Positions 13,666-62,330 of a stretch of DNA of 64,000 bases are shown in pieces (position 1 is the first letter of the stretch; each line of letters begins with the position of its first letter). The position numbers and the translations under genes were made by a program. Location: positions 2,294,001 through 2,358,000 of the forward strand of contig OX595991.1 in the NCBI GenBank assembly GCA_951394045.1, read 5' to 3'. Below the pieces are notes generated by a model. The model made no database searches. It was not told the DNA's origin and saw nothing but the letters and a program-made list of their open reading frames with translations. This stretch comes from Nitzschia sp. DOCU1. Taxonomy: Eukaryota; Bacillariophyta; Bacillariophyceae; Bacillariales; Bacillariaceae.

Positions 13666-13869
13666 GATTAAGATACTGAAACGAAGTAGCAAGAGACGAT
13701 CAAACGCTAAATTACACTCTAGTAGAGTAGTAGGTCAACGATTTCAATTTATCTTACAAAAAGTGGCTTCCCCTCAAAACCGTAGTCCTCGATCGTGAAT
13801 GGTGTTGAAACGACAATAATCAGTCTAAAATGTATTTATATATGCAAAGGATGGCCTTCCCCGCACGTG
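13666..13869. other. Short intergenic region before tRNA-Tyr
   Basis: 204 bp; nothing recognisable. The promoter boxes of the tRNA are internal to it. Confidence 0.3.
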
Positions 13870-13956
13870 CTCGCTGTAGCTCAGTTGGCAGAGCGGTGGA
13901 CTGTAGTTTGACAACAGCGTATCCATCGGTCACTGGTTCGATTCCTGTCGGCGAGA
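13870..13956 (+). tRNA. tRNA-Tyr(GTA) with 14-nt intron
   Basis: Acceptor stem CTCGCTG pairs with CGGCGAG, discriminator A; the C1-G72 pair plus A73 is the eukaryotic Tyr identity set. D arm is GCTC...GAGC. Anticodon stem GTGGA/TCCAT encloses CTGTAG-A with anticodon GTA. The T loop is TTCGATT; its 5-bp stem has one T-T mismatch. Fourteen extra bases (TTTGACAACAGCGT) after the base 3' of the anticodon form the canonical-position intron, which eukaryotic tRNA-Tyr genes usually carry. Mature length is 73 nt before CCA. A second copy lies at 35224-35310 on the other strand. Confidence 0.95.
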
Positions 13957-14116
13957 CACTTTTTGGCCCGTTAAATTTAAATCCTCGCTCCGTGACCTGC
14001 TGCTGCCACAAACTCAGATTTCAATGTACCAGATACGTTTTTGCTGCTCTCATCACACCCGACAACAAATAACTATCGCATTGGAACCTTTTGTTGTCTA
14101 TCGGTAGAGTGCAAAC

Positions 14117-20401: not shown

Positions 20402-20543
20402 TGTGATGCGCCACGTGTCTCTTACGCACCTCTAGACTGACGTACGAGGATGTCAAACCTCATTCAAGATCGCTCGTCGGCCTCCATGCCTACTCGTAGC
20501 CCTCATAATAATGGATAGTTGATTGCTTCACACGCGTAGTTCA
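20402..20543 (+). repeat. 5' LTR of the gypsy element
   Basis: 142 bp, TG...CA ends, matched base for base by eye with 25250-25391. Short for an LTR. Followed at once by a 12-bp palindrome rather than an obvious tRNA-complementary TGG primer site. Confidence 0.92.
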
Positions 20544-20671
20544 CTCTGAATTCAGAAGCAAGTTCGCGTACAATCTGTACTATCCCCTACGTAAGGAAAA
20601 TCGAAAATCGATTCACCTGTCAAGCTAATAACATCCTCTCTCTATTGCGAGTTTGTCTAACTTCTCCTCAC

Positions 20672-25249: not shown

Positions 25250-25391
25250 TGTGATGCGCCACGTGTCTCTTACGCACCTCTAGACTGACGTACGAGGATG
25301 TCAAACCTCATTCAAGATCGCTCGTCGGCCTCCATGCCTACTCGTAGCCCTCATAATAATGGATAGTTGATTGCTTCACACGCGTAGTTCA
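25250..25391 (+). repeat. 3' LTR of the gypsy element
   Basis: 142 bp, appears identical to 20402-20543. Followed by CACAA and, eight bases on, a 9-bp inverted repeat. Confidence 0.92.
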
Positions 25392-25398
25392 CACAAAC

Positions 25399-34851: not shown

Positions 34852-35223
34852 TGTTCGTTCTGAAATGGCAAACCTTCCAAATGTTTCAGAAATGAATGAA
34901 TGCCTTCTTGCCGAGTCAAGGAGTATTGGGATTGCAATTTTACATCTCCACGCCTATCATAGGAGTGCACAGTACAGTCGGTGCCGCAAAATTTGGATTT
35001 TACGCATTTGACAGCTTCTCGAATCGCCTCAAATTTTTGGGCGCGCCATATCTTGCCCTGACGAAATGAATGCCACAATGACTGGATTCAGGTATTACTG
35101 CATTTCCTCATGCCAAGCATTCTGCTACAGTCAGAGCAACTAAGGTAGCAGTAATATGGTAGAAAACATGATGGAGAGCATCGTTCGAATGCACAATCTT
35201 GTCTCTGTGGAGAGGTAAAAAAG
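34852..35223. other. Intergenic region up to tRNA-Tyr
   Basis: 372 bp, promoter side of the 342-aa gene. No other feature recognised. Confidence 0.3.
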
Positions 35224-35310
35224 TCTCGCCGACAGGAATCGAACCAGTGACCGATGGATAAGCTGTTGTCAAACTACAGTCCACCGCTCTGCCAACTGAG
35301 CTACAGCGAG
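35224..35310 (-). tRNA. tRNA-Tyr(GTA) with 14-nt intron, second copy
   Basis: Exons match the 13870-13956 gene base for base; only one intron base differs (TTTGACAACAGCTT here). It is in opposite orientation, 21 kb away. Flanks show no shared sequence, so it is a dispersed gene copy rather than part of a recent large duplication. Confidence 0.95.
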
Positions 35311-35488
35311 ACATCGTACAAACTCAGGTGAAATTTAACTACATAAATACTTTTTGAGGACCCCGAATGTTTGCACATCACTATGGACGACGGCGACAGT
35401 CAGTGGGCAATGCAATAGTACCATTACTTTGTGCAGGAACAAGCATTTGGACTATCACTGCTGCACAATTCCCTCTATCACAAGCAGC

Positions 35489-44669: not shown

Positions 44670-44967
44670 ACATCTTGGCATGTAAACTCTGTAATTCAAT
44701 TTAGCTATTTAAAGTCTAGAGCAGCTCTTGCTCCTACGATTTATTAAATAGGACGAGACAGCAAAACTAAATCTCTTACCCACAGCAAGAACACAAGCAG
44801 AACGCGATACCCTTCTTCCAAATTGCATTGCAGCCTTCACATTACTGAATGTTGGGCACGTTGGACTTCTGTGGTACAAGGCCAAACGATGGGGTTTCGA
44901 GTAGCCAGGCACTCCAACCGAATGAGAACGTCCTTTTTCATTGATCGATCGAAGGAAAGGGACGCAT
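44670..44967. other. Intergenic region left of the recombinase unit
   Basis: 298 bp, ending in the left half-site GGACGCAT-AC of the element. Nothing else recognised. Confidence 0.35.
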
Positions 44968-44976
44968 ACTTAGTCC
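44960..44976 (+). other. Left outer att-like site
   Basis: GGACGC-AT-ACTTAGTCC. The right part equals the start of every unit; the left part is host flank. Compare the internal junction form GGACGC-CTCT-ACTTAGTCC. Confidence 0.55.
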
Positions 44977-45315
44977 TGCATCGTATAGGTATATACATAC
45001 GCTCATTCCGTAGACTCATAAACGATATAGGCATAACCATATATTATGCAAGGATCCCGTGGGGGAGTCTTGCTAACAAATTCCGTTGAGGTTTTTGAGT
45101 CCCTTTGGTACTCGCCGCAAAATATATGATGTGGCGGGAAAAAATTAATACCGATTTGGTACTCTCGGAACGACTGGCACGAACCAACAGGAAAATACAC
45201 GACTCATGCGAGCATGGCCATCTGAGCATTCAAAATTGTTTCACGACAAATTTTGCGACGATGCGTCTGATCGATAGCTACTTCTGTCGACGCGGACGCT
45301 GCTACTATCAAATGG
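44968..45315. repeat. Diverged 5' end shared with the 1,491-bp units
   Basis: Aligns by eye with 48482-48770 of the array: shared blocks include ACTTAGTCCTGCATC, TATGCAAGGATCC versus TTTGCAAGGATCC, GGCGGGA.AAAA, and CGACTGGCACGAA. Identity is moderate with small indels, so this copy is far older than the array copies are from each other. It lies directly 3' of the recombinase gene. Confidence 0.8.
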
Positions 45316-45344
45316 GCTAATATTAAAATAATAAACGATTCACG

Positions 45345-48254
45345 TTAAGATATAAAATGATCCGTGCCATTATTTGGCAGATCTTGCAGTCTATTTTGAA
45401 ATGCAAGGCGCTCAAAAGTAGATAAATTCCCATTGTTCGGTGGGACCCTGTTGTCTGGCTGATGACGGAGCCACAGGGCATGACCTTCGGTGCCAACAGC
45501 ATCGCCAACTCGCCGTCTATAATCCGCTTCAGCCTCCATGTCTTCCTTCCTTTCCTCTGCCCCCTCTGCTAAAATCTGGCGGTCCAGCTGTGTCATGTGC
45601 TCCGTCATTTCAACTTCCCCAAATGCAGCAGCAAAGGCACCCGACGTGTCATTTGTGTTGCTTATTCGACGACGACGACGGTGATGGCCACGGGACTGCT
45701 GCTGATTGCTGGCATCATCTTCGCTCTGGTCGGTATCATCACTCTGGTCAGCATCATCGCAACAATCAACATCATCGGCCGCAGCAGCAGCAGTATTTCT
45801 TTGCATCGTTCCGGAATTTCTGGGGGTCTGTCTTCGGGTTGCTGCATCTTTGGCTTTCCTCTTCCGTTTTGCAGTTTTTCTTGGGCGAGAGTTACTTGAA
45901 AGAGGGGGCAAATTTGAGATGTCCAGTGCCTCCCCACCCTTTTGAATGCTTGATGGGAGTGCATGGCGTGACCAGGTAGCAAGCTTCCATTCCAGGGGCT
46001 TCTTGCGCCTGTTTTTGAAGACGTAAGTCATTCTTTGACTTTTCAAGTAGTCAAAGCCCACTTCGAAAACATTGTCCAATTCGTCTGCAGAAATTGTTGT
46101 GCACTCCGGAATGGTGATGCCTGGAGCAGCAAAAAAGAGTTCCATGATTGGTCTCCAGTGTAGTTGATATAGTTGTTTGACTTTCAGGGGTAACAATTTA
46201 GGTTGTAAAAGTCGAAATGGACGAATGGGTGCAGCCCTTGCGTCTCTAGTTCTTGTAGGATCTGCCGTCTGATATCCCGGCATCCCTTCCAGCCACATAC
46301 GAACAGCTGTTCGCAGTGGAATATCGGTAGGAAGTACAAATTCAGCAGGCACATGCCACATCTTGCCCCCGTGGGCATAAAGCCGAAATGACTGAGCCGG
46401 TTCATTGTTGTCCTCGTCCCCATCGGCAAAAGGCATCTCCCCTGCATCGTCGTCATCCTCGTCATCATGAGGATTGACTGCAGTAGTGCCGTAGTTACCC
46501 AAAGAAGGCCTCATCTCTCTTAGACGCTGAACCTTCTCATCTAAAGCATCAAATCGAGATGCCAAAGACGCATTTAGCTCATCAAGCATGTGGCGCATAC
46601 GATCCGCTGTCATATGGCCATTTGCCTGTGCTCTTTGTTCATAGGCTTCTTCGACTGCACTCCGAACTTCAGCTGATAAATTCCCAACAGTGGCCAGCGT
46701 TGATTCAGCCACATCAATCATTTTTTTCATCTGCACCGAATGTCGAATGTGGGGAGGGATTCCGGTTGCTATTCGCATTGATTCTGAGGGCTCAGTGGTG
46801 ACGAGAGCCTTCAAACCAGAAAGCATGTCACGTCGCTGGAGTAGCGGTATATTTGCAAATAAGTGCCCTGGTTTTTCTCGCATCCAAGTATCAAGAAATT
46901 CAGAATGATAAACAACAGCTGGCAGAACTCGCAACAATAATCCAGTTGGGTTTGCATTCGTTGGTTCTTCGCCCCATCGTTGAAGAATTGGCCCATACAT
47001 CAAACCCATCGCTTCTTTGATCAGGTCGTTACCCATTGGGTTGGAAGGAATGAAGTGGGGGGGCAGAGTGGCAAATTTGTCGTCCAATGGGTCCAATCCT
47101 GCCAATATGCGCCCCAAATATGTGTCGGCCGGATCATCCAAATGTAAGTACAGGTCGAACACACGACCAAGGCTCCACTCACCACGACCAGCTGTAGCAG
47201 TAGCTGGAGGTGGGCAGGTGGTGCCGGATTGTGAATAAGTCCCTGATCCTTTCCGAATGGAGTGCGTATTCGCATGATTGGGGCGCATGTAGTGCACCAC
47301 TGAATCATGGTGCTTCTTTAAAATCTCATTAAGTTGAGTGCAGAAACGCCCTGATGCGGCATCAGAAAGAGTGTCATCGGACCGAAACAAGTCTTCGTGG
47401 TCTGAGAAGTTGGTTGGATCAATCGACAGCCAAATGCCCAAGGCAAGGAAAAGATCCAAGACAGGATCTAAGGGATTTGCGAAGAGGTGCTTGTCGTGAC
47501 AAGACTCTCCTGCTTGATCCGCCTTGTGGCTGTCGTAGCGGATAATTATGTTGTCTTCGCCTACTCGAAAGTTGTGAAAGCACAGAGTCCCAACACTGAT
47601 AGACCGCGCCATCAGATTCCACTGTAGTAATGCGAAGACCCAAACATAGAGATTATTGGCTTCTAACGACCACTCCAACCAGTGGCGAAACATAGTGAAT
47701 GGAACAGGATCAGCTTCGCTCTCATCAAGTCGACCATCCCTTGCACCAATGCGAGTTTCCTTTCTGTATGAATTGAGCCACTTTTCTATTTCTTCATGGA
47801 AATTGGTGGGTAGACGTTCTTTTGCACACTCAGCACCCCACAAAATGGCATCCCGGTATTTTCGAATGTTGTTGAAGCTTTGGAGCTTCCCGTTTGCCTT
47901 GTTCTTTTTCTGACCTAAGAATACTTTAACAAACTCAACGTTCATGCCCTCGTACTTTAGGTCGTACGTGTTTTTGTGATGGAAAACATTGCTTGTGTCA
48001 AGCACGACAACCACGCCACCAGCATCGCAGTAGTCCGGGTATTTTTCCTGCAGGAATTCGTATATGTGCTTAATACGATTCCTATAGCCTTCTTTCGTCT
48101 TCAGCTTTCGGTCATGCCCCTCAGTGGCTTGAACTGAAAGACGATGATCCTCGTTGATGGCGATGGTGGCACCAATGATAGGAACATCATCATTGGTGTC
48201 CCGTTCATGCGGACGAATGCGCCCCCTAGCAACAGTAGCCCCACCTCTTGGCAT
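45345..48254 (-). CDS. Crypton-type tyrosine recombinase, catalytic set intact
   Basis: Intronless 969 aa. Residues about 50-200 form a helical core-binding-like region. The catalytic domain has Arg217 (LMARSISVGTLCF), Lys244 (YDSHKADQ), His331 and Arg334 (NTHSIRKGSG), Trp360 and Tyr369 (EWSLGRVFDLY). The 26-residue gap from Arg334 to Trp360 and the nine from Trp to Tyr fit the tyrosine recombinase fold. A coil-like segment (about 530-600) follows. At about 660-790 is a Trp/Leu-rich module that may correspond to the GCR1_C DNA-binding domain of cryptons. The basic RPRKTAKRKRKAKD is a likely nuclear signal, and the tail is Asp/Gln-rich. No reverse transcriptase is present nearby, so it is not DIRS or Ngaro. 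Cryptons integrate as circles with short direct repeats (established). Confidence 0.82.
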   Translation of the reverse strand: MPRGGATVARGRIRPHERDTNDDVPIIGATIAINEDHRLSVQATEGHDRKLKTKEGYRNRIKHIYEFLQEKYPDYCDAGGVVVVLDTSNVFHHKNTYDLKYEGMNVEFVKVFLGQKKNKANGKLQSFNNIRKYRDAILWGAECAKERLPTNFHEEIEKWLNSYRKETRIGARDGRLDESEADPVPFTMFRHWLEWSLEANNLYVWVFALLQWNLMARSISVGTLCFHNFRVGEDNIIIRYDSHKADQAGESCHDKHLFANPLDPVLDLFLALGIWLSIDPTNFSDHEDLFRSDDTLSDAASGRFCTQLNEILKKHHDSVVHYMRPNHANTHSIRKGSGTYSQSGTTCPPPATATAGRGEWSLGRVFDLYLHLDDPADTYLGRILAGLDPLDDKFATLPPHFIPSNPMGNDLIKEAMGLMYGPILQRWGEEPTNANPTGLLLRVLPAVVYHSEFLDTWMREKPGHLFANIPLLQRRDMLSGLKALVTTEPSESMRIATGIPPHIRHSVQMKKMIDVAESTLATVGNLSAEVRSAVEEAYEQRAQANGHMTADRMRHMLDELNASLASRFDALDEKVQRLREMRPSLGNYGTTAVNPHDDEDDDDAGEMPFADGDEDNNEPAQSFRLYAHGGKMWHVPAEFVLPTDIPLRTAVRMWLEGMPGYQTADPTRTRDARAAPIRPFRLLQPKLLPLKVKQLYQLHWRPIMELFFAAPGITIPECTTISADELDNVFEVGFDYLKSQRMTYVFKNRRKKPLEWKLATWSRHALPSSIQKGGEALDISNLPPLSSNSRPRKTAKRKRKAKDAATRRQTPRNSGTMQRNTAAAAADDVDCCDDADQSDDTDQSEDDASNQQQSRGHHRRRRRISNTNDTSGAFAAAFGEVEMTEHMTQLDRQILAEGAEERKEDMEAEADYRRRVGDAVGTEGHALWLRHQPDNRVPPNNGNLSTFERLAFQNRLQDLPNNGTDHFIS

Positions 48255-48481
48255 GGTGATAAAGAGACTTTGCTGATTAATAGGGGGTTATTCGAATTGT
48301 GTTCTGATGGTGGGTTGTTGGGGCAGCATTGGTGGTTGGTTGTCGGCGCGCATTTTTGGTCGTGTACGAGGACTTCAAAATTATTCCCAAATTACTCCCC
48401 ACTACATATTACTTAGGTAGTAAGATAATAACAGTGGTATAACACGTACTGACAAATGTTATACTATGCGCGGACGCTCCT
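48255..48481. other. 5' flank of recombinase gene and shared 3' end of its unit
   Basis: 227 bp before the array. From about 48370 it aligns with the end of each 1,491-bp unit: CTACATATT..TTA.GTAGTAA, GGTATAACACGTACTGA, CTTATACGATA-like and GGACGC. It must also hold the recombinase promoter. That promoter-containing end is kept in the short units. Confidence 0.65.
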
Positions 48482-48490
48482 ACTTAGTCC
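48473..48490 (+). other. Junction site between recombinase unit and array
   Basis: GGACGC-TCT-ACTTAGTCC. Identical junctions with spacer CTCT start at 49963, 51454, 52945, 54436, 55927, 57418, 58909 and 60400. The four-base arms GGAC and GTCC are inverted repeats. The right outer half-site GGACGC-CTCT-AC is at 61891-61902. Confidence 0.6.
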
Positions 48491-51400
48491 TGCATCATAT
48501 AGGCATGTACATATATTTGTGACGTAGAGTCAGCGAACTATATAAGAAAATCATATATTTTGCAAGGATCCTGGGAGGGAGTTCTGCCTAGCAATTCTCA
48601 TGGGAATTTTGAAGTCCTTCAGGTACTCCCCGCATGATATAATCAATGGCGGGACAAAAATTATACAGACTTGGGATTCCCTGCCGGCCGCTTGGTACGA
48701 CTGGCACGAATAATACGACACGACTGCATGCGAACAAGGCCACGCCGCCGCCGAAGCCGACGCTACTATGAAATCGTCGGCACCACTATTTCTACTGCTA
48801 AGTTCCCACCCGCCATTTGCCCTTGTGCATGGCGGCGATGTGCAAGAAGCACCCCCCTCAACTATACTGCCCCCAGGAAGCAAGATTACAAACTCGTCCT
48901 AGATTATAGGCGGTACTAATAGTGGCTGGGCCTCCGTTCTAAGAATAATCTAGTACCTAGTCAACCCGTTAAAACTAAAGCTAGAGAGCATCAACTTTGG
49001 CAGCCTTCATTGTTGCTGGTTGTCATCTTATTAGGAGTCATTGTTCTTGTCCATCCTTGTTATGCTGCTGCCGACTCCAGGCGACCTGCCCCTTTCTTGT
49101 TCTTCATTCGTTCGTTCCTTTTCTTTACAATGGAATCAGGATTCCTGTGCGCCGTCATCATCGTTCTCTAATTCTTTTGAGACTTTCAATATGCCAAGTA
49201 TGGAAGGTGCTCAGCAATTTTGACAAGCACAAAAAGCATCCCCCGTTTGCATGCCACCGTTTCCCAGAAGGAATAAAAGCGAGAACTGCTATGTTGGTTG
49301 TGATTCCTGATTGGCTACACCCGTCATTTGTTTGCCTTATTCTTCCATTAATGGATGATTGTTGTCGGGTGGAACAATATTCCTGATGGCTTGTTTCATT
49401 ATTTCGTAACTTGTCCCGCATTACATCGTTCAGAATAGCAAAGACAAACGCAGTGAGTAAAGGAGTGGTGGGTGAGCAATTCGATCCGCATATGCGTCAT
49501 CCAAATACTGAATCCAACTCATCATGCTTACCTTTGGTACAACACGATTTCCCGCCGCCATTGCGTGTTTGACTCGACTTGACCGAAGGCATTGGTGGTG
49601 GAATGGTCATTGGCAGAAATGCTCATCCCTTTTGTCTTGCAGTAGAAAGCTGGCGAGAAGGGAGTTATTGGGCGCGGATGCAACATGACTGCCCCCTTCT
49701 TATACACTACAGGCAGACCAATTAATTGTCTTGAATTCACACTTGCTCATAGTCCATAACAATAAAGATGACAAGATGCATTGTCGTTCTTAATGTTTTC
49801 TTTGTGTGGTTGAGATACACGTAATATTTAGCGCGCAGGGACTCTCCTCTATAACGGTTCTCAGTAGTAAGAACTTCGTTATTCCGATCCATCCTCTCCT
49901 CTACATATTTCTTAAGTAGTAATAACGGTATAACACGTACTGAAAAATCTTATACGATACTCGGACGCCTCTACTTAGTCCTGCATCATATAGGCATGTA
50001 CATATATTTGTGACGTAGAGTCAGCGAACTATATAAGAAAATCATATATTTTGCAAGGATCCTGGGAGGGAGTTCTGCCTAGCAATTCTCATGGGAATTT
50101 TGAAGTCCTTCAGGTACTCCCCGCATGATATAATCAATGGCGGGACAAAAATTATACAGACTTGGGATTCCCTGCCGGCCGCTTGGTACGACTGGCACGA
50201 ATAATACGACACGACTGCATGCGAACAAGGCCACGCCGCCGCCGAAGCCGACGCTACTATGAAATCGTCGGCACCACTATTTCTACTGCTAAGTTCCCAC
50301 CCGCCATTTGCCCTTGTGCATGGCGGCGATGTGCAAGAAGCACCCCCCTCAACTATACTGCCCCCAGGAAGCAAGATTACAAACTCGTCCTAGATTATAG
50401 GCGGTACTAATAGTGGCTGGGCCTCCGTTCTAAGAATAATCTAGTACCTAGTCAACCCGTTAAAACTAAAGCTAGAGAGCATCAACTTTGGCAGCCTTCA
50501 TTGTTGCTGGTTGTCATCTTATTAGGAGTCATTGTTCTTGTCCATCCTTGTTATGCTGCTGCCGACTCCAGGCGACCTGCCCCTTTCTTGTTCTTCATTC
50601 GTTCGTTCCTTTTCTTTACAATGGAATCAGGATTCCTGTGCGCCGTCATCATCGTTCTCTAATTCTTTTGAGACTTTCAATATGCCAAGTATGGAAGGTG
50701 CTCAGCAATTTTGACAAGCACAAAAAGCATCCCCCGTTTGCATGCCACCGTTTCCCAGAAGGAATAAAAGCGAGGACTGCTATGTTGGTTGTGATTCCTG
50801 ATTGGCTACACCCGTCATTTGTTTGCCTTATTCTTCCATTAATGGATGATTGTTGTCGGGTGGAACAATATTCCTGATGGCTTGTTTCATTATTTCGTAA
50901 CTTGTCCCGCATTACATCGTTCAGAATAGCAAAGACAAACGCAGTGAGTAAAGGAGTGGTGGGTGAGCAATTCGATCCGCATATGCGTCATCCAAATACT
51001 GAATCCAACTCATCATGCTTACCTTTGGTACAACACGATTTCCCGCCGCCATTGCGTGTTTGACTCGACTTGACCGAAGGCATTGGTGGTGGAATGGTCA
51101 TTGGCAGAAATGCTCATCCCTTTTGTCTTGCAGTAGAAAGCTGGCGAGAAGGGAGTTATTGGGCGCGGATGCAACATGACTGCCCCCTTCTTATACACTA
51201 CAGGCAGACCAATTAATTGTCTTGAATTCACACTTGCTCATAGTCCATAACAATAAAGATGACAAGATGCATTGTCGTTCTTAATGTTTTCTTTGTGTGG
51301 TTGAGATACACGTAATATTTAGCGCGCAGGGACTCTCCTCTATAACGGTTCTCAGTAGTAAGAACTTCGTTATTCCGATCCATCCTCTCCTCTACATATT

Positions 51401-54400
51401 TCTTAAGTAGTAATAACGGTATAACACGTACTGAAAAATCTTATACGATACTCGGACGCCTCTACTTAGTCCTGCATCATATAGGCATGTACATATATTT
51501 GTGACGTAGAGTCAGCGAACTATATAAGAAAATCATATATTTTGCAAGGATCCTGGGAGGGAGTTCTGCCTAGCAATTCTCATGGGAATTTTGAAGTCCT
51601 TCAGGTACTCCCCGCATGATATAATCAATGGCGGGACAAAAATTATACAGACTTGGGATTCCCTGCCGGCCGCTTGGTACGACTGGCACGAATAATACGA
51701 CACGACTGCATGCGAACAAGGCCACGCCGCCGCCGAAGCCGACGCTACTATGAAATCGTCGGCACCACTATTTCTACTGCTAAGTTCCCACCCGCCATTT
51801 GCCCTTGTGCATGGCGGCGATGTGCAAGAAGCACCCCCCTCAACTATACTGCCCCCAGGAAGCAAGATTACAAACTCGTCCTAGATTATAGGCGGTACTA
51901 ATAGTGGCTGGGCCTCCGTTCTAAGAATAATCTAGTACCTAGTCAACCCGTTAAAACTAAAGCTAGAGAGCATCAACTTTGGCAGCCTTCATTGTTGCTG
52001 GTTGTCATCTTATTAGGAGTCATTGTTCTTGTCCATCCTTGTTATGCTGCTGCCGACTCCAGGCGACCTGCCCCTTTCTTGTTCTTCATTCGTTCGTTCC
52101 TTTTCTTTACAATGGAATCAGGATTCCTGTGCGCCGTCATCATCGTTCTCTAATTCTTTTGAGACTTTCAATATGCCAAGTATGGAAGGTGCTCAGCAAT
52201 TTTGACAAGCACAAAAAGCATCCCCCGTTTGCATGCCACCGTTTCCCAGAAGGAATAAAAGCGAGGACTGCTATGTTGGTTGTGATTCCTGATTGGCTAC
52301 ACCCGTCATTTGTTTGCCTTATTCTTCCATTAATGGATGATTGTTGTCGGGTGGAACAATATTCCTGATGGCTTGTTTCATTATTTCGTAACTTGTCCCG
52401 CATTACATCGTTCAGAATAGCAAAGACAAACGCAGTGAGTAAAGGAGTGGTGGGTGAGCAATTCGATCCGCATATGCGTCATCCAAATACTGAATCCAAC
52501 TCATCATGCTTACCTTTGGTACAACACGATTTCCCGCCGCCATTGCGTGTTTGACTCGACTTGACCGAAGGCATTGGTGGTGGAATGGTCATTGGCAGAA
52601 ATGCTCATCCCTTTTGTCTTGCAGTAGAAAGCTGGCGAGAAGGGAGTTATTGGGCGCGGATGCAACATGACTGCCCCCTTCTTATACACTACAGGCAGAC
52701 CAATTAATTGTCTTGAATTCACACTTGCTCATAGTCCATAACAATAAAGATGACAAGATGCATTGTCGTTCTTAATGTTTTCTTTGTGTGGTTGAGATAC
52801 ACGTAATATTTAGCGCGCAGGGACTCTCCTCTATAACGGTTCTCAGTAGTAAGAACTTCGTTATTCCGATCCATCCTCTCCTCTACATATTTCTTAAGTA
52901 GTAATAACGGTATAACACGTACTGAAAAATCTTATACGATACTCGGACGCCTCTACTTAGTCCTGCATCATATAGGCATGTACATATATTTGTGACGTAG
53001 AGTCAGCGAACTATATAAGAAAATCATATATTTTGCAAGGATCCTGGGAGGGAGTTCTGCCTAGCAATTCTCATGGGAATTTTGAAGTCCTTCAGGTACT
53101 CCCCGCATGATATAATCAATGGCGGGACAAAAATTATACAGACTTGGGATTCCCTGCCGGCCGCTTGGTACGACTGGCACGAATAATACGACACGACTGC
53201 ATGCGAACAAGGCCACGCCGCCGCCGAAGCCGACGCTACTATGAAATCGTCGGCACCACTATTTCTACTGCTAAGTTCCCACCCGCCATTTGCCCTTGTG
53301 CATGGCGGCGATGTGCAAGAAGCACCCCCCTCAACTATACTGCCCCCAGGAAGCAAGATTACAAACTCGTCCTAGATTATAGGCGGTACTAATAGTGGCT
53401 GGGCCTCCGTTCTAAGAATAATCTAGTACCTAGTCAACCCGTTAAAACTAAAGCTAGAGAGCATCAACTTTGGCAGCCTTCATTGTTGCTGGTTGTCATC
53501 TTATTAGGAGTCATTGTTCTTGTCCATCCTTGTTATGCTGCTGCCGACTCCAGGCGACCTGCCCCTTTCTTGTTCTTCATTCGTTCGTTCCTTTTCTTTA
53601 CAATGGAATCAGGATTCCTGTGCGCCGTCATCATCGTTCTCTAATTCTTTTGAGACTTTCAATATGCCAAGTATGGAAGGTGCTCAGCAATTTTGACAAG
53701 CACAAAAAGCATCCCCCGTTTGCATGCCACCGTTTCCCAGAAGGAATAAAAGCGAGAACTGCTATGTTGGTTGTGATTCCTGATTGGCTACACCCGTCAT
53801 TTGTTTGCCTTATTCTTCCATTAATGGATGATTGTTGTCGGGTGGAACAATATTCCTGATGGCTTGTTTCATTATTTCGTAACTTGTCCCGCATTACATC
53901 GTTCAGAATAGCAAAGACAAACGCAGTGAGTAAAGGAGTGGTGGGTGAGCAATTCGATCCGCATATGCGTCATCCAAATACTGAATCCAACTCATCATGC
54001 TTACCTTTGGTACAACACGATTTCCCGCCGCCATTGCGTGTTTGACTCGACTTGACCGAAGGCATTGGTGGTGGAATGGTCATTGGCAGAAATGCTCATC
54101 CCTTTTGTCTTGCAGTAGAAAGCTGGCGAGAAGGGAGTTATTGGGCGCGGATGCAACATGACTGCCCCCTTCTTATACACTACAGGCAGACCAATTAATT
54201 GTCTTGAATTCACACTTGCTCATAGTCCATAACAATAAAGATGACAAGATGCATTGTCGTTCTTAATGTTTTCTTTGTGTGGTTGAGATACACGTAATAT
54301 TTAGCGCGCAGGGACTCTCCTCTATAACGGTTCTCAGTAGTAAGAACTTCGTTATTCCGATCCATCCTCTCCTCTACATATTTCTTAAGTAGTAATAACG

Positions 54401-57400
54401 GTATAACACGTACTGAAAAATCTTATACGATACTCGGACGCCTCTACTTAGTCCTGCATCATATAGGCATGTACATATATTTGTGACGTAGAGTCAGCGA
54501 ACTATATAAGAAAATCATATATTTTGCAAGGATCCTGGGAGGGAGTTCTGCCTAGCAATTCTCATGGGAATTTTGAAGTCCTTCAGGTACTCCCCGCATG
54601 ATATAATCAATGGCGGGACAAAAATTATACAGACTTGGGATTCCCTGCCGGCCGCTTGGTACGACTGGCACGAATAATACGACACGACTGCATGCGAACA
54701 AGGCCACGCCGCCGCCGAAGCCGACGCTACTATGAAATCGTCGGCACCACTATTTCTACTGCTAAGTTCCCACCCGCCATTTGCCCTTGTGCATGGCGGC
54801 GATGTGCAAGAAGCACCCCCCTCAACTATACTGCCCCCAGGAAGCAAGATTACAAACTCGTCCTAGATTATAGGCGGTACTAATAGTGGCTGGGCCTCCG
54901 TTCTAAGAATAATCTAGTACCTAGTCAACCCGTTAAAACTAAAGCTAGAGAGCATCAACTTTGGCAGCCTTCATTGTTGCTGGTTGTCATCTTATTAGGA
55001 GTCATTGTTCTTGTCCATCCTTGTTATGCTGCTGCCGACTCCAGGCGACCTGCCCCTTTCTTGTTCTTCATTCGTTCGTTCCTTTTCTTTACAATGGAAT
55101 CAGGATTCCTGTGCGCCGTCATCATCGTTCTCTAATTCTTTTGAGACTTTCAATATGCCAAGTATGGAAGGTGCTCAGCAATTTTGACAAGCACAAAAAG
55201 CATCCCCCGTTTGCATGCCACCGTTTCCCAGAAGGAATAAAAGCGAGGACTGCTATGTTGGTTGTGATTCCTGATTGGCTACACCCGTCATTTGTTTGCC
55301 TTATTCTTCCATTAATGGATGATTGTTGTCGGGTGGAACAATATTCCTGATGGCTTGTTTCATTATTTCGTAACTTGTCCCGCATTACATCGTTCAGAAT
55401 AGCAAAGACAAACGCAGTGAGTAAAGGAGTGGTGGGTGAGCAATTTGATCCGCATATGCGTCATCCAAATACTGAATCCAACTCATCATGCTTCCCTTTG
55501 GTACAACACGATTTCCCGCCGCCATTGCGTGTTTGACTCGACTTGACCGAAGGCATTGGTGGTGGAATGGTCATTGGCAGAAATGCTCATCCCTTTTGTC
55601 TTGCAGTAGAAAGCTGGCGAGAAGGGAGTTATTGGGCGCGGATGCAACATGACTGCCCCCTTCTTATACACTACAGGCAGACCAATTAATTGTCTTGAAT
55701 TCACACTTGCTCATAGTCCATAACAATAAAGATGACAAGATGCATTGTCGTTCTTAATGTTTTCTTTGTGTGGTTGAGATACACGTAATATTTAGCGCGC
55801 AGGGACTCTCCTCTATAACGGTTCTCAGTAGTAAGAACTTCGTTATTCCGATCCATCCTCTCCTCTACATATTTCTTAAGTAGTAATAACGGTATAACAC
55901 GTACTGAAAAATCTTATACGATACTCGGACGCCTCTACTTAGTCCTGCATCATATAGGCATGTACATATATTTGTGACGTAGAGTCAGCGAACTATATAA
56001 GAAAATCATATATTTTGCAAGGATCCTGGGAGGGAGTTCTGCCTAGCAATTCTCATGGGAATTTTGAAGTCCTTCAGGTACTCCCCGCATGATATAATCA
56101 ATGGCGGGACAAAAATTATACAGACTTGGGATTCCCTGCCGGCCGCTTGGTACGACTGGCACGAATAATACGACACGACTGCATGCGAACAAGGCCACGC
56201 CGCCGCCGAAGCCGACGCTACTATGAAATCGTCGGCACCACTATTTCTACTGCTAAGTTCCCACCCGCCATTTGCCCTTGTGCATGGCGGCGATGTGCAA
56301 GAAGCACCCCCCTCAACTATACTGCCCCCAGGAAGCAAGATTACAAACTCGTCCTAGATTATAGGCGGTACTAATAGTGGCTGGGCCTCCGTTCTAAGAA
56401 TAATCTAGTACCTAGTCAACCCGTTAAAACTAAAGCTAGAGAGCATCAACTTTGGCAGCCTTCATTGTTGCTGGTTGTCATCTTATTAGGAGTCATTGTT
56501 CTTGTCCATCCTTGTTATGCTGCTGCCGACTCCAGGCGACCTGCCCCTTTCTTGTTCTTCATTCGTTCGTTCCTTTTCTTTACAATGGAATCAGGATTCC
56601 TGTGCGCCGTCATCATCGTTCTCTAATTCTTTTGAGACTTTCAATATGCCAAGTATGGAAGGTGCTCAGCAATTTTGACAAGCACAAAAAGCATCCCCCG
56701 TTTGCATGCCACCGTTTCCCAGAAGGAATAAAAGCGAGGACTGCTATGTTGGTTGTGATTCCTGATTGGCTACACCCGTCATTTGTTTGCCTTATTCTTC
56801 CATTAATGGATGATTGTTGTCGGGTGGAACAATATTCCTGATGGCTTGTTTCATTATTTCGTAACTTGTCCCGCATTACATCGTTCAGAATAGCAAAGAC
56901 AAACGCAGTGAGTAAAGGAGTGGTGGGTGAGCAATTCGATCCGCATATGCGTCATCCAAATACTGAATCCAACTCATCATGCTTCCCTTTGGTACAACAC
57001 GATTTCCCGCCGCCATTGCGTGTTTGACTCGACTTGACCGAAGGCATTGGTGGTGGAATGGTCATTGGCAGAAATGCTCATCCCTTTTGTCTTGCAGTAG
57101 AAAGCTGGCGAGAAGGGAGTTATTGGGCGCGGATGCAACATGACTGCCCCCTTCTTATACACTACAGGCAGACCAATTAATTGTCTTGAATTCACACTTG
57201 CTCATAGTCCATAACAATAAAGATGACAAGATGCATTGTCGTTCTTAATGTTTTCTTTGTGTGGTTGAGATACACGTAATATTTAGGGCGCAGGGACTCT
57301 CCTCTATAACGGTTCTCAGTAGTAAGAACTTCGTTATTCCGATCCATCCTCTCCTCTACATATTTCTTAAGTAGTAATAACGGTATAACACGTACTGAAA

Positions 57401-60400
57401 AATCTTATACGATACTCGGACGCCTCTACTTAGTCCTGCATCATATAGGCATGTACATATATTTGTGACGTAGAGTCAGCGAACTATATAAGAAAATCAT
57501 ATATTTTGCAAGGATCCTGGGAGGGAGTTCTGCCTAGCAATTCTCATGGGAATTTTGAAGTCCTTCAGGTACTCCCCGCATGATATAATCAATGGCGGGA
57601 CAAAAATTATACAGACTTGGGATTCCCTGCCGGCCGCTTGGTACGACTGGCACGAATAATACGACACGACTGCATGCGAACAAGGCCACGCCGCCGCCGA
57701 AGCCGACGCTACTATGAAATCGTCGGCACCACTATTTCTACTGCTAAGTTCCCACCCGCCATTTGCCCTTGTGCATGGCGGCGATGTGCAAGAAGCACCC
57801 CCCTCAACTATACTGCCCCCAGGAAGCAAGATTACAAACTCGTCCTAGATTATAGGCGGTACTAATAGTGGCTGGGCCTCCGTTCTAAGAATAATCTAGT
57901 ACCTAGTCAACCCGTTAAAACTAAAGCTAGAGAGCATCAACTTTGGCAGCCTTCATTGTTGCTGGTTGTCATCTTATTAGGAGTCATTGTTCTTGTCCAT
58001 CCTTGTTATGCTGCTGCCGACTCCAGGCGACCTGCCCCTTTCTTGTTCTTCATTCGTTCGTTCCTTTTCTTTACAATGGAATCAGGATTCCTGTGCGCCG
58101 TCATCATCGTTCTCTAATTCTTTTGAGACTTTCAATATGCCAAGTATGGAAGGTGCTCAGCAATTTTGACAAGCACAAAAAGCATCCCCCGTTTGCATGC
58201 CACCGTTTCCCAGAAGGAATAAAAGCGAGGACTGCTATGTTGGTTGTGATTCCTGATTGGCTACACCCGTCATTTGTTTGCCTTATTCTTCCATTAATGG
58301 ATGATTGTTGTCGGGTGGAACAATATTCCTGATGGCTTGTTTCATTATTTCGTAACTTGTCCCGCATTACATCGTTCAGAATAGCAAAGACAAACGCAGT
58401 GAGTAAAGGAGTGGTGGGTGAGCAATTCGATCCGCATATGCGTCATCCAAATACTGAATCCAACTCATCATGCTTCCCTTTGGTACAACACGATTTCCCG
58501 CCGCCATTGCGTGTTTGACTCGACTTGACCGAAGGCATTGGTGGTGGAATGGTCATTGGCAGAAATGCTCATCCCTTTTGTCTTGCAGTAGAAAGCTGGC
58601 GAGAAGGGAGTTATTGGGCGCGGATGCAACATGACTGCCCCCTTCTTATACACTACAGGCAGACCAATTAATTGTCTTGAATTCACACTTGCTCATAGTC
58701 CATAACAATAAAGATGACAAGATGCATTGTCGTTCTTAATGTTTTCTTTGTGTGGTTGAGATACACGTAATATTTAGCGCGCAGGGACTCTCCTCTATAA
58801 CGGTTCTCAGTAGTAAGAACTTCGTTATTCCGATCCATCCTCTCCTCTACATATTTCTTAAGTAGTAATAACGGTATAACACGTACTGAAAAATCTTATA
58901 CGATACTCGGACGCCTCTACTTAGTCCTGCATCATATAGGCATGTACATATATTTGTGACGTAGAGTCAGCGAACTATATAAGAAAATCATATATTTTGC
59001 AAGGATCCTGGGAGGGAGTTCTGCCTAGCAATTCTCATGGGAATTTTGAAGTCCTTCAGGTACTCCCCGCATGATATAATCAATGGCGGGACAAAAATTA
59101 TACAGACTTGGGATTCCCTGCCGGCCGCTTGGTACGACTGGCACGAATAATACGACACGACTGCATGCGAACAAGGCCACGCCGCCGCCGAAGCCGACGC
59201 TACTATGAAATCGTCGGCACCACTATTTCTACTGCTAAGTTCCCACCCGCCATTTGCCCTTGTGCATGGCGGCGATGTGCAAGAAGCACCCCCCTCAACT
59301 ATACTGCCCCCAGGAAGCAAGATTACAAACTCGTCCTAGATTATAGGCGGTACTAATAGTGGCTGGGCCTCCGTTCTAAGAATAATCTAGTACCTAGTCA
59401 ACCCGTTAAAACTAAAGCTAGAGAGCATCAACTTTGGCAGCCTTCATTGTTGCTGGTTGTCATCTTATTAGGAGTCATTGTTCTTGTCCATCCTTGTTAT
59501 GCTGCTGCCGACTCCAGGCGACCTGCCCCTTTCTTGTTCTTCATTCGTTCGTTCCTTTTCTTTACAATGGAATCAGGATTCCTGTGCGCCGTCATCATCG
59601 TTCTCTAATTCTTTTGAGACTTTCAATATGCCAAGTATGGAAGGTGCTCAGCAATTTTGACAAGCACAAAAAGCATCCCCCGTTTGCATGCCACCGTTTC
59701 CCAGAAGGAATAAAAGCGAGGACTGCTATGTTGGTTGTGATTCCTGATTGGCTACACCCGTCATTTGTTTGCCTTATTCTTCCATTAATGGATGATTGTT
59801 GTCGGGTGGAACAATATTCCTGATGGCTTGTTTCATTATTTCGTAACTTGTCCCGCATTACATCGTTCAGAATAGCAAAGACAAACGCAGTGAGTAAAGG
59901 AGTGGTGGGTGAGCAATTCGATCCGCATATGCGTCATCCAAATACTGAATCCAACTCATCATGCTTACCTTTGGTACAACACGATTTCCCGCCGCCATTG
60001 CGTGTTTGACTCAACTTGACCGAAGGCATTGGTGGTGGAATGGTCATTGGCAGAAATGCTCATCCCTTTTGTCTTGCAGTAGAAAGCTGGCGAGAAGGGA
60101 GTTATTGGGCGCGGATGCAACATGACTGCCCCCTTCTTATACACTACAGGCAGACCAATTAATTGTCTTGAATTCACACTTGCTCATAGTCCATAACAAT
60201 AAAGATGACAAGATGCATTGTCGTTCTTAATGTTTTCTTTGTGTGGTTGAGATACACGTAATATTTAGCGCGCAGGGACTCTCCTCTATAACGGTTCTCA
60301 GTAGTAAGAACTTCGTTATTCCGATCCATCCTCTCCTCTACATATTTCTTAAGTAGTAATAACGGTATAACACGTACTGAAAAATCTTATACGATACTCG

Positions 60401-61900
60401 GACGCCTCTACTTAGTCCTGCATCATATAGGCATGTACATATATTTGTGACGTAGAGTCAGCGAACTATATAAGAAAATCATATATTTTGCAAGGATCCT
60501 GGGAGGGAGTTCTGCCTAGCAATTCTCATGGGAATTTTGAAGTCCTTCAGGTACTCCCCGCATGATATAATCAATGGCGGGACAAAAATTATACAGACTT
60601 GGGATTCCCTGCCGGCCGCTTGGTACGACTGGCACGAATAATACGACACGACTGCATGCGAACAAGGCCACGCCGCCGCCGAAGCCGACGCTACTATGAA
60701 ATCGTCGGCACCACTATTTCTACTGCTAAGTTCCCACCCGCCATTTGCCCTTGTGCATGGCGGCGATGTGCAAGAAGCACCCCCCTCAACTATACTGCCC
60801 CCAGGAAGCAAGATTACAAACTCGTCCTAGATTATAGGCGGTACTAATAGTGGCTGGGCCTCCGTTCTAAGAATAATCTAGTACCTAGTCAACCCGTTAA
60901 AACTAAAGCTAGAGAGCATCAACTTTGGCAGCCTTCATTGTTGCTGGTTGTCATCTTATTAGGAGTCATTGTTCTTGTCCATCCTTGTTATGCTGCTGCC
61001 GACTCCAGGCGACCTGCCCCTTTCTTGTTCTTCATTCGTTCGTTCCTTTTCTTTACAATGGAATCAGGATTCCTGTGCGCCGTCATCATCGTTCTCTAAT
61101 TCTTTTGAGACTTTCAATATGCCAAGTATGGAAGGTGCTCAGCAATTTTGACAAGCACAAAAAGCATCCCCCGTTTGCATGCCACCGTTTCCCAGAAGGA
61201 ATAAAAGCGAGGACTGCTATGTTGGTTGTGATTCCTGATTGGCTACACCCGTCATTTGTTTGCCTTATTCTTCCATTAATGGATGATTGTTGTCGGGTGG
61301 AACAATATTCCTGATGGCTTGTTTCATTATTTCGTAACTTGTCCCGCATTACATCGTTCAGAATAGCAAAGACAAACGCAGTGAGTAAAGGAGTGGTGGG
61401 TGAGCAATTCGATCCGCATATGCGTCATCCAAATACTGAATCCAACTCATCATGCTTACCTTTGGTACAACACGATTTCCCGCCGCCATTGCGTGTTTGA
61501 CTCAACTTGACCGAAGGCATTGGTGGTGGAATGGTCATTGGCAGAAATGCTCATCCCTTTTGTCTTGCAGTAGAAAGCTGGCGAGAAGGGAGTTATTGGG
61601 CGCGGATGCAACATGACTGCCCCCTTCTTATACACTACAGGCAGACCAATTAATTGTCTTGAATTCACACTTGCTCATAGTCCATAACAATAAAGATGAC
61701 AAGATGCATTGTCGTTCTTAATGTTTTCTTTGTGTGGTTGAGATACACGTAATATTTAGCGCGCAGGGACTCTCCTCTATAACGGTTCTCAGTAGTAAGA
61801 ACTTCGTTATTCCGATCCATCCTCTCCTCTACATATTTCTTAAGTAGTAATAACGGTATAACACGTACTGAAAAATCTTATACGATACTCGGACGCCTCT
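48482..61900. repeat. Nine near-identical 1,491-bp tandem units
   Basis: Unit starts (ACTTAGTCCTGCATC): 48482, 49973, 51464, 52955, 54446, 55937, 57428, 58919, 60410. Differences I can see are few: A instead of G at 49284 and 53757 (units 1 and 4); C instead of A at 55494, 56985 and 58476 (units 5-7); T at 55446 (unit 5); G at 57287 (unit 6); A at 60013 and 61504 (units 8-9). Short frames in each unit (up to 129 codons) repeat only because the DNA repeats; none has a domain. A satellite-like but element-derived array. Confidence 0.95.
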
Positions 61901-62330
61901 ACGCATTCGTTTCGCTTGACAGAAGTTGACCTCGCTCTTTCCTCGCCTTGCGCGTTGGAGGCAGCGGGGCCAGATGATACGTGACGGCCTTCTGTTGGGC
62001 CTAATTTGGGGATGTTGGTTGATATGCCACTTTTCCTTCCCTGCCCCGAAATTAATTATGCTGGACTTTCAACACTATGGTCACATAAAGTGTACAGTAT
62101 CTATTAGACGTGAGTAAGTGGATACCTGGTACGGAAATCCCCGGCAATCACCGAGGAAGCGGCGGAGACAACAATAATACTGTAGGCCGACTGCGACACA
62201 CGATGATGATATTGCATCCACAGGCAGATCTTTTTGAATTGTATCTCCGCAACGATAGAGGCTGTACGCTAGATATCACAATTGACTCCATCTTTGATGC
62301 ATTGTACATACCCTCTTAGGAAAGCCGAAA
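61901..62330. other. Intergenic region right of the array
   Basis: 430 bp of unique sequence between the last unit and the acetyltransferase start. Short frames (61926-62117, 62110-62319) show no domain. It must hold the acetyltransferase promoter and 5' UTR. Confidence 0.4.

What the first reader, a model, noticed from the sequence alone, without database searches (positions are those of the whole stretch)
44968..61900. A tyrosine-recombinase element followed by nine stacked non-autonomous derivatives that share both its ends
Seen: a 3,514-bp unit with an intact recombinase gene is joined head-to-tail to exactly nine 1,491-bp units. The short units start and end with the same segments as the recombinase unit but replace its interior. 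Known: cryptons and other tyrosine recombinases move as double-stranded circles and recombine short identical sites. Inference: a circularised deletion derivative is inserted again and again at the element's own junction site, building an array driven by the neighbouring recombinase. I know of no described crypton locus with this autonomous-plus-array layout. It could be a eukaryotic analogue of cassette stacking by integron or conjugative-element recombinases.
Basis: partly seen in the sequence, partly recalled or inferred. Interest (0 to 1): 0.9.

Follow-up and report, generated by a model that had tools for sequence, protein, structure and literature searches.

The report
Self-stacking mobile DNA in a diatom
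A diatom chromosome carries a mobile element that encodes its own DNA-rejoining enzyme, joined exactly end to end with nine shorter copies that lack the enzyme; similar end-to-end stacks occur elsewhere in this genome in several families of such elements and their short derivatives, so the window looks like one case of a general behaviour.

Summary
44968-48481 is an intact tyrosine-recombinase (YR) element (A). It is followed without a gap by nine 1,491-bp units with no long ORF (48482-61900) that share A's two ends (about 70-75% and 80% identity) but not its interior.

The host is a diatom. Single copies of A and of the unit occur elsewhere with the same ends, and joined flanks of two insertions match uninterrupted copies exactly, so insertion was precise. 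The pattern is genome-wide: YR families A, B, C and E each have short derivatives sharing only the ends, and I found 22 head-to-tail stacks (17 of derivatives, 2 to 13 units; 5 autonomous dimers). Sixteen were read at a junction; six are inferred from abutting match coordinates. Every junction read is exact.

"Inserted again and again" is less likely: units in the five fully read arrays are almost identical, which points to one founder and local duplication. A beside its units is the only mixed stack seen.

Most likely these are Crypton-like elements whose right-end/left-end junction is itself a recombination site, comparable to tandem accretion of bacterial integrative elements. Circles were not shown, and the arm symmetry of the junction is only partly supported.

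The parts
44968..48481 (-). Autonomous tyrosine-recombinase element A (3,514 bp); strand given is that of its gene
   Evidence: two other full copies with the same ends, one (C1:1382792) differing by a few bases at the extreme right end
45345..48254 (-). Recombinase ORF, 969 aa; R217, K244, H331, R334, W360, Y369
   Evidence: 100% identical ORF at C1:467813
46806..47726 (-). Predicted YR catalytic domain (residues 177-483)
48482..49972 (+). Non-autonomous unit 1
49973..51463 (+). Non-autonomous unit 2
51464..52954 (+). Non-autonomous unit 3
52955..54445 (+). Non-autonomous unit 4
54446..55936 (+). Non-autonomous unit 5
55937..57427 (+). Non-autonomous unit 6
57428..58918 (+). Non-autonomous unit 7
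58919..60409 (+). Non-autonomous unit 8
60410..61900 (+). Non-autonomous unit 9; host DNA resumes at 61901 with ACGCAT
48460..48502 (.). Heterotypic A|unit junction: right-end arm 48460-48475, spacer 48476-48486 (GCTCCTACTTA), left-end arm 48487-48502; proposed assembled recombination site
   Evidence: sequence; gapped arm test (A right end with A left end p~0.0035; unit with unit p~0.45; mispaired ends of other families sometimes score as well)
44928..44967 (.). Left host flank of the stack
61901..61940 (.). Right host flank; over 21 insertions read, this place begins ACG in 14 and AC in 18

Best explanation
Element A is a Crypton-like DNA transposon that moves by tyrosine-recombinase strand exchange; the 1,491-bp units are relatives without a long ORF that keep the ends the enzyme acts on. 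Shown: precise insertion at scattered sites (empty sites for A, its unit and family C); short direct repeats of 2-7 bases at the ends; exact right-end/left-end joining in every junction read; the same in autonomous dimers of families B-E and in derivatives of families A, B, C and E. Inferred: when a right end meets a left end (in a circle or in a stack) two inverted arms form a complete recombination site, better than ordinary host targets, so a later insertion, or an exchange between sister chromatids, lands exactly on the element boundary and makes a head-to-tail stack. A joined the unit array (or the first unit joined A) by such a site-specific event. Each homotypic array then grew locally from one founder, by recombinase-mediated unequal exchange, by entry of a multimeric circle, or, once two units existed, by ordinary unequal crossing-over. 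Supply of recombinase in trans by A is inferred from the shared ends.
For: Recombinase: R217, K244, W360 and Y369 in 43 of 43 aligned sequences, R334 in 42 of 43; YR fold. Precise insertion: the 100-bp joined flanks of A at C1:467586 match 33 listed places at 100/100, those of a unit match C1:4930318 at 100/100, and a family-C insertion lies beside an uninterrupted copy of its target in a host minisatellite. Stacks: autonomous dimers of B, C (two), D and E, 1-2 mismatches between the two members; arrays of derivatives 13x1617, 11x1498, 9x1491, 7x1336 and 6x1288/1261, all read in full with 1-5 SNP positions each; family-specific target motifs such as CCTNNNGGT (CCT in 8 of 9, GGT in 9 of 9 right flanks of family B). 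A single element is not expected to be duplicated exactly at its ends by homologous recombination, since the direct repeats are only 2-7 bases (reasoning). Junction arms: p about 0.0035 (A), 0.0045 (B), 0.04 (C, E) by shuffling; ungapped test 0 of 500 shuffles for B, D and E.
Against: No circle was observed. Arm symmetry is weak at the window's own unit|unit junction (p~0.45) and in D (p~0.21); an ungapped test did not single out A (39 of 500), C (26), the units (399) or A|unit (312), and the D match it found spans 62 bases. In the mispaired-end control the window unit's own junction scores below 6 of the 7 mispaired ones in its row, and the right ends of the C3 unit and of a C10 unit pair score higher with the left end of A (the C3 unit also with that of C) than with their own, so the arms are not family-specific in A-type units. 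That A mobilises the units is inferred only. Near-identity inside arrays can also be homogenisation by ordinary unequal crossing-over. Only one mixed stack was found, so stacking by incoming elements rests on a single locus. Confidence was lowered from 0.72 to 0.68 when the mispaired-end control was written in.
Confidence: 0.68

Rival explanations
1. Repeated insertion: each unit was a separate circle that entered the resident junction one after another, drawn from copies anywhere in the genome.
For: The A|unit junction joins two elements of different sequence at exact ends, which needs at least one such event. The family-B left end carries part of its host target motif (CCTTAAAGT against CCTNNNGGT).
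Against: Within-array units match each other better than other loci: the C3 array differs at 20 columns from its closest single but has 2 SNPs and one deletion inside; the two C dimers differ from each other by 2.6% but by 1 mismatch within; window SNP types run mainly in neighbouring units (order a00acccdd, permutation p 0.027) and occur in none of the three near-identical singles.
Confidence: 0.2
2. Plain satellite expansion: after a chance duplication the units grew by unequal homologous crossing-over, and the recombinase plays no part.
For: Near-identity of units and neighbour-shared SNPs; the alternating 27-bp length variant in the C-type array looks like duplication of a two-unit block.
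Against: It does not explain why stacks in five families start, join and end exactly at transposon ends, nor the A|unit junction between elements that share only ends of 70-80% identity.
Confidence: 0.12
3. Concatemer entry: circles multimerise before insertion (by replication or circle-circle recombination), and a whole array enters in one event. This is one of the growth routes that the best explanation leaves open.
For: In the C3, B-type and E-type arrays nearly every variant is private to one unit, as expected for a single burst followed by mutation. A public protein (P0001, one residue shorter than the window's and one substitution) lies on a 3,541-bp contig, which equals 3,511 + 30 and would fit a closed 3,511-bp cycle assembled with 31-base words (assembly word length recalled, other indels unknown).
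Against: Shared SNPs in neighbouring window units need duplications after mutation. The contig-length argument is a single coincidence and could be chance; searches with B and C gave no second case.
Confidence: 0.25
4. Assembly artefact: collapsed or invented repeats.
For: Near-identical units are hard to assemble, and exact unit counts may be wrong. No raw reads were available.
Against: The five fully read arrays each carry at least one distinguishing SNP or indel, and stacks in several families show the same exact junction logic.
Confidence: 0.04

Closest known systems
Cryptons (YR DNA transposons; Kojima and Jurka 2011, PMC3212892)
   Same: Single YR gene, short direct repeats at the ends, presumed circular intermediate; CryptonS is reported from oomycetes and one diatom (passages and section 7 seen).
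   Different: No DUF3504 or GCR1_C match in Pfam; none of the A-E ends read has the TATGG termini of most CryptonS. 'Tandem' occurs once in that text and only in its reference list.
Tandem accretion of bacterial ICE/IME with cis-mobilizable elements (CIME), and tandem SGI1 arrays (up to 6 copies), review PMC5704250
   Same: Integrated elements whose att sites recombine head to tail; autonomous and non-autonomous members stacked; for SGI1, concatemer entry or repeated entry are both discussed there (passages seen).
   Different: Bacterial, conjugative or mobilizable, usually at fixed chromosomal sites (recalled); here eukaryotic, many dispersed sites, up to 13 units.
Integron cassette arrays
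   Same: YR-driven building of arrays of non-autonomous units beside a recombinase gene (recalled).
   Different: Here units within an array are near-identical and without long ORFs, the recombinase is itself inside an element of the stack, and for 16 of 17 stacks of derivatives no recombinase element was seen next to them.
Tandem Helitron arrays; tandem MITE arrays of corals (CMITE)
   Same: DNA elements in head-to-tail arrays (passages of PMC4067079 and PMC2872659).
   Different: Bypass of a termination signal (Helitrons), or piggyBac-related MITEs with replication slippage proposed; the passages seen do not speak of recombinase sites at the junctions.

Membership tests
Crypton superfamily | Tyrosine recombinase with R-K-[H/Y]-R-[H/W]-Y catalytic set (labels recalled) | tested here: met
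   43 of 43 for R217, K244, W360, Y369; R334 42 of 43; position 331 H 28, Y 14, C 1 of 43
Crypton superfamily | YR catalytic fold | tested here: met
   (predicted model, mean pLDDT 76)
Crypton superfamily | No reverse transcriptase or DDE transposase in the element | tested here: met
   no Pfam family over its cut-off in the 969-aa ORF; the only other ORF of 150 aa or more inside A overlaps it on the other strand (not scanned)
Crypton superfamily | Short (4-6 bp) direct repeats at the ends, no longer target duplication | tested here: met
   repeats of 2-7 bases by family and site; empty sites for A, a unit and C, for B, D and E read from flanks only. The 2- and 3-base cases fall below the published range; 3 of 21 A-type right flanks do not begin with AC
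Crypton superfamily | DUF3504 or GCR1_C domains (some groups) | tested here: inconclusive
   no Pfam match in A or in one protein each of B, C, D and E; GCR1_C is absent from CryptonS by the paper
Crypton superfamily | Circular double-stranded intermediate | not testable with these tools
   no reads; no junction in viral contigs, which need not hold diatom DNA
CryptonS | TATGG termini (reported for the majority) | tested here: not met
   ends of A-E; section 7 seen
Bacterial ICE/CIME accretion | Head-to-tail stacking at att sites, including non-autonomous members | tested here: met
   (stacking at element ends; that the ends are att sites is inferred)
Bacterial ICE/CIME accretion | Conjugation or mobilisation genes | tested here: not met
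   only the recombinase ORF and one overlapping opposite-strand ORF of 150 aa or more in A; no Pfam family over its cut-off in the recombinase. It works like accretion but is not a member
Helitron | Rep/helicase protein | tested here: not met
   Pfam, A; predicted YR fold
Ordinary satellite DNA | Unit boundaries arbitrary, no dispersed single copies with the same ends and empty sites | tested here: not met

The most novel reading that the evidence does not exclude
This diatom runs a genome-wide accretion system: several Crypton-like recombinases use their own end-to-end junction as the preferred recombination site, so they and the short parasites that copy their ends build, lose and probably shed arrays (up to 13 units) by site-specific recombination. 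It would be a eukaryotic counterpart of tandem accretion by bacterial integrative elements and a route by which transposons become satellite DNA.
Probability: 0.47. Interest if true: 0.82.

Novelty: new variant of a known kind. Interest (0 to 1): 0.72.

Why it matters
How Cryptons move has been proposed by analogy with prokaryotic YR elements (PMC3212892, passages seen). Here joined ends, empty sites and family-specific targets are readable, so the recombination site of a eukaryotic YR transposon can be written down and tested directly. The stacks also suggest how transposons can seed satellite arrays without ordinary homologous recombination at the first step. Five autonomous families in one small genome, four of them shown to have end-sharing derivatives (the fifth, D, was not searched for them), give natural replicates, and their recombinases could be tested for site specificity.

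Tried and rejected
Rfam search of A plus two units at E 0.5: no match. Short ORFs in the unit (up to 129 aa with TTG starts) were not scanned for families. In seven derivative units of four families the longest ATG ORF is 69-122 aa, and tblastn with all 222 proteins held gave only a weak 39-residue match in the E-type unit (best E 0.005). A profile search of PDB sequences found no tyrosine recombinase: 7 matches at E 0.0015-0.65, probably low complexity, one of them a retroviral integrase at E 0.65, so the fold rests on the predicted model. The ungapped inverted-repeat scan was uninformative for A; the gapped version and its mispaired control are reported with good and bad values. Viral contigs gave no relative of the recombinase and no junction pattern. 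No exon carrying the C-terminal Cys/His stretch of relatives was seen by eye in three frames downstream of the A stop codon. Homologue searches with B and C were meant to repeat the contig-length hint for circles; no near-identical full-length protein was listed (best for B 97% over 55% of the query), so the P0001 coincidence stays a single hint. Literature: no title or abstract opening in the listings describes tandem or head-to-tail Crypton arrays; of the Crypton papers listed only passages of PMC3212892 were opened, and most subscription journals are not held, so this is not proof of absence. Considered and rejected: integron membership, Helitron, plain satellite.
Full report
The stack. The window holds a 3,514-bp unit at 44968-48481 and nine 1,491-bp units at 48482-61900, joined without spare bases. 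The short units vary at five positions in total. A and the units are alike only at the ends: about 190-260 bp on the left at 70-75% and about 83 bp on the right at 80%; the outermost 15 left-end bases are identical. The unit interior gave no match to the recombinases held or to Rfam; its longest ATG ORF is 87 aa.

The host. The assembly has 52.08 Mb in 63 contigs. Silicon-transporter exons (PF03842) match at 18 places, all over the cut-off, and the named relatives of the recombinase come from diatoms (Fragilaria, Skeletonema, Thalassiosira). It is a diatom; the species is not known to me.

Mobility. Full copies of A occur at C1:467586 (100%) and C1:1382792 (98%). Among the 42 matches listed for the unit, three are single copies 99.87-99.93% alike. 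The complete relatives of 71-85% begin with AC[TA]TAGTCC and end with GGACGC plus TCCT or CTCT; exceptions are ACGTAG at the C8 single and a right end a few bases different at the C1:1382792 copy of A; partial and interrupted copies also exist. Of 21 right flanks read, 18 start with AC and 14 with ACG. Of 16 insertions whose joined 50+50-base flanks were searched, A at C1:467586 matches 33 listed places perfectly, one unit (C1) matches one place perfectly, two units (C15, C10) find places 93-96% alike, and 12 have no match in the listing, which scored 40 of 122 candidates. At the family-C insertion on C3 an uninterrupted target lies next to it in a host minisatellite. Insertion is therefore precise where it could be checked. 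Short direct repeats read from ends and flanks are AC or TCCT (A), CCT (B), ATG (C), ATCT (D) and AAGATCC (E).

Stacks are general. Searching the genome with the protein found four more autonomous families. B, D and E each have one exact dimer and C has two, with 1-2 mismatches between the members. B: 1 dimer in 6 loci (two of the six damaged); C: 2 in 5 loci read, with further C loci at C14:270311 and C2:750149 and fragments not read at their ends; D: 1 in 2; E: 1, beside single copies on C15 and C1 and damaged ones on C14, C4 and C6. Searching with the DNA of E, B and C (D was not searched) showed that each also has short derivatives that share only its ends, many in arrays: B-type 13x1617 (C2), 4x1283 (C9), 3x1608 (C1) and pairs on C8, C4 and C47; C-type 6x1288/1261 and 5x1710 (C10) and pairs on C7 and C1; E-type 7x1336 (C10), 3x1423 (C6) and a pair on C11. 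A-type: the window's nine, eleven on C3 and two pairs on C10. That makes 17 stacks of derivatives and 5 autonomous dimers. At least one junction was read in sequence for 11 of the 17 and for all 5 dimers; the other six rest on abutting match coordinates. C4 and C47 hold equal pairs and may be the same locus assembled twice. Counts are lower bounds because the searches score only the best candidates. Of these 22, only the window was seen to combine an autonomous element with derivatives. Seven units from four families were checked: longest ATG ORF 69-122 aa, and similarity to the autonomous elements at the two ends only.

How stacks grow. Five arrays were read completely: window 9 units (5 SNP positions), C3 11 units (2 SNPs, one 14-bp deletion), B-type C2 13 units (3 SNPs, one 3-bp insertion), C-type C10 6 units (1 internal SNP, a 27-bp length variant missing from units 2 and 4, and a G/A difference at the left edge), E-type C10 7 units (1 SNP). 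The C3 units differ from their closest single at 20 columns. In the window the SNP types run a-0-0-a-c-c-c-d-d (permutation p 0.027) and none is found in the three near-identical singles; these singles differ from the units by only 1-2 bases, so this last point is weak. Together this favours one founder per array and local duplication. It does not tell whether the duplication was by recombinase exchange between sister chromatids, by entry of a multimer, or by ordinary crossing-over once two units existed. The first doubling, and the A|unit junction, most likely need site-specific chemistry, because direct repeats of 2-7 bases are too short for homologous recombination (reasoning).

The junction as a site. 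Right end and left end together place inverted arms around a short spacer: A with itself, TATACTATGCGCGGAC - GCTCCTACTTA - GTCCTGCATCGTATAG; B, GTGTATACGATTCCGAC - 14 bp - GTCGGAATTTTATACAC. Gapped comparison with shuffles gives p about 0.0035 (A), 0.0045 (B), 0.008 (one C10 unit pair), 0.02 (C3 units), 0.04 (C, E), 0.21 (D) and 0.45 (the window's own units). As a control, right ends were also paired with left ends of other families: own pairs score best in their row for A, B, C and E, but not for the window's unit (6 of 7 mispaired score higher), the C3 unit or the C10 pair, and D ties. An earlier ungapped test gave 0 of 500 shuffles for B, D and E, 26 for C, 39 for A, 57 for the C10 pair, 162 for the C3 units, 312 for A|unit and 399 for unit|unit. 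Family B inserts before CCTNNNGGT (CCT 8 of 9, GGT 9 of 9), and its own left end reads CCTTAAAGT, so the element end resembles its target.

Circles. None was seen. A public protein, P0001, is one residue shorter than the window's (and has one substitution) and lies on a 3,541-bp contig, which is what a closed 3,511-bp cycle would give with 31-base words; this is one coincidence and the word length is recalled.

Comparison. The elements behave like Cryptons, but membership in a named Crypton group is not shown: no DUF3504 match and no TATGG ends. Stacking resembles tandem accretion of bacterial ICE and CIME and tandem SGI1 arrays (passages of PMC5704250). The listings (titles and abstract openings) show no paper on Crypton tandem arrays.

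Noticed in passing
G000:C10:1745731-1756882: An A-type unit (minus strand) and the 7-unit E-type array lie about 300 bp apart, so different families cluster here.
   Followed up: no
G000:C1:984726-986117: A C-type derivative of only 696 bp per unit stands as a pair (abutting match coordinates), the smallest unit seen.
   Followed up: no
G000:C16:1093902-1096904, C4:3413484-3416504, C1:4925249-4927589: Three A-type units are split by inserts of about 0.8-1.5 kb, two of them near unit position 95; the inserts showed no similarity over 60 bases to one another or to other loci held.
   Followed up: partly
G000:C1:467586 flank: One copy of A sits in a host repeat of which at least 33 places match the 100-bp flank query perfectly; the nature of that repeat was not determined.
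   Followed up: no
window 30543-31343: A roughly 240-bp tandem repeat (83-88% alike).
   Followed up: no
window 20402-20544 and 25250-25392: A 143-bp direct repeat, 100% identical.
   Followed up: no
window 13865-13964 and 35217-35317: A roughly 100-bp inverted repeat, 95% identical.
   Followed up: no
C-terminal end of relatives of the recombinase: Families B, C and D and many homologues end in a Cys/His-rich stretch (by eye and in the consensus; Znf_SCAND3 over its cut-off only in homologue P0031, weak in C and D, none in B); the window's protein lacks it.
   Followed up: partly
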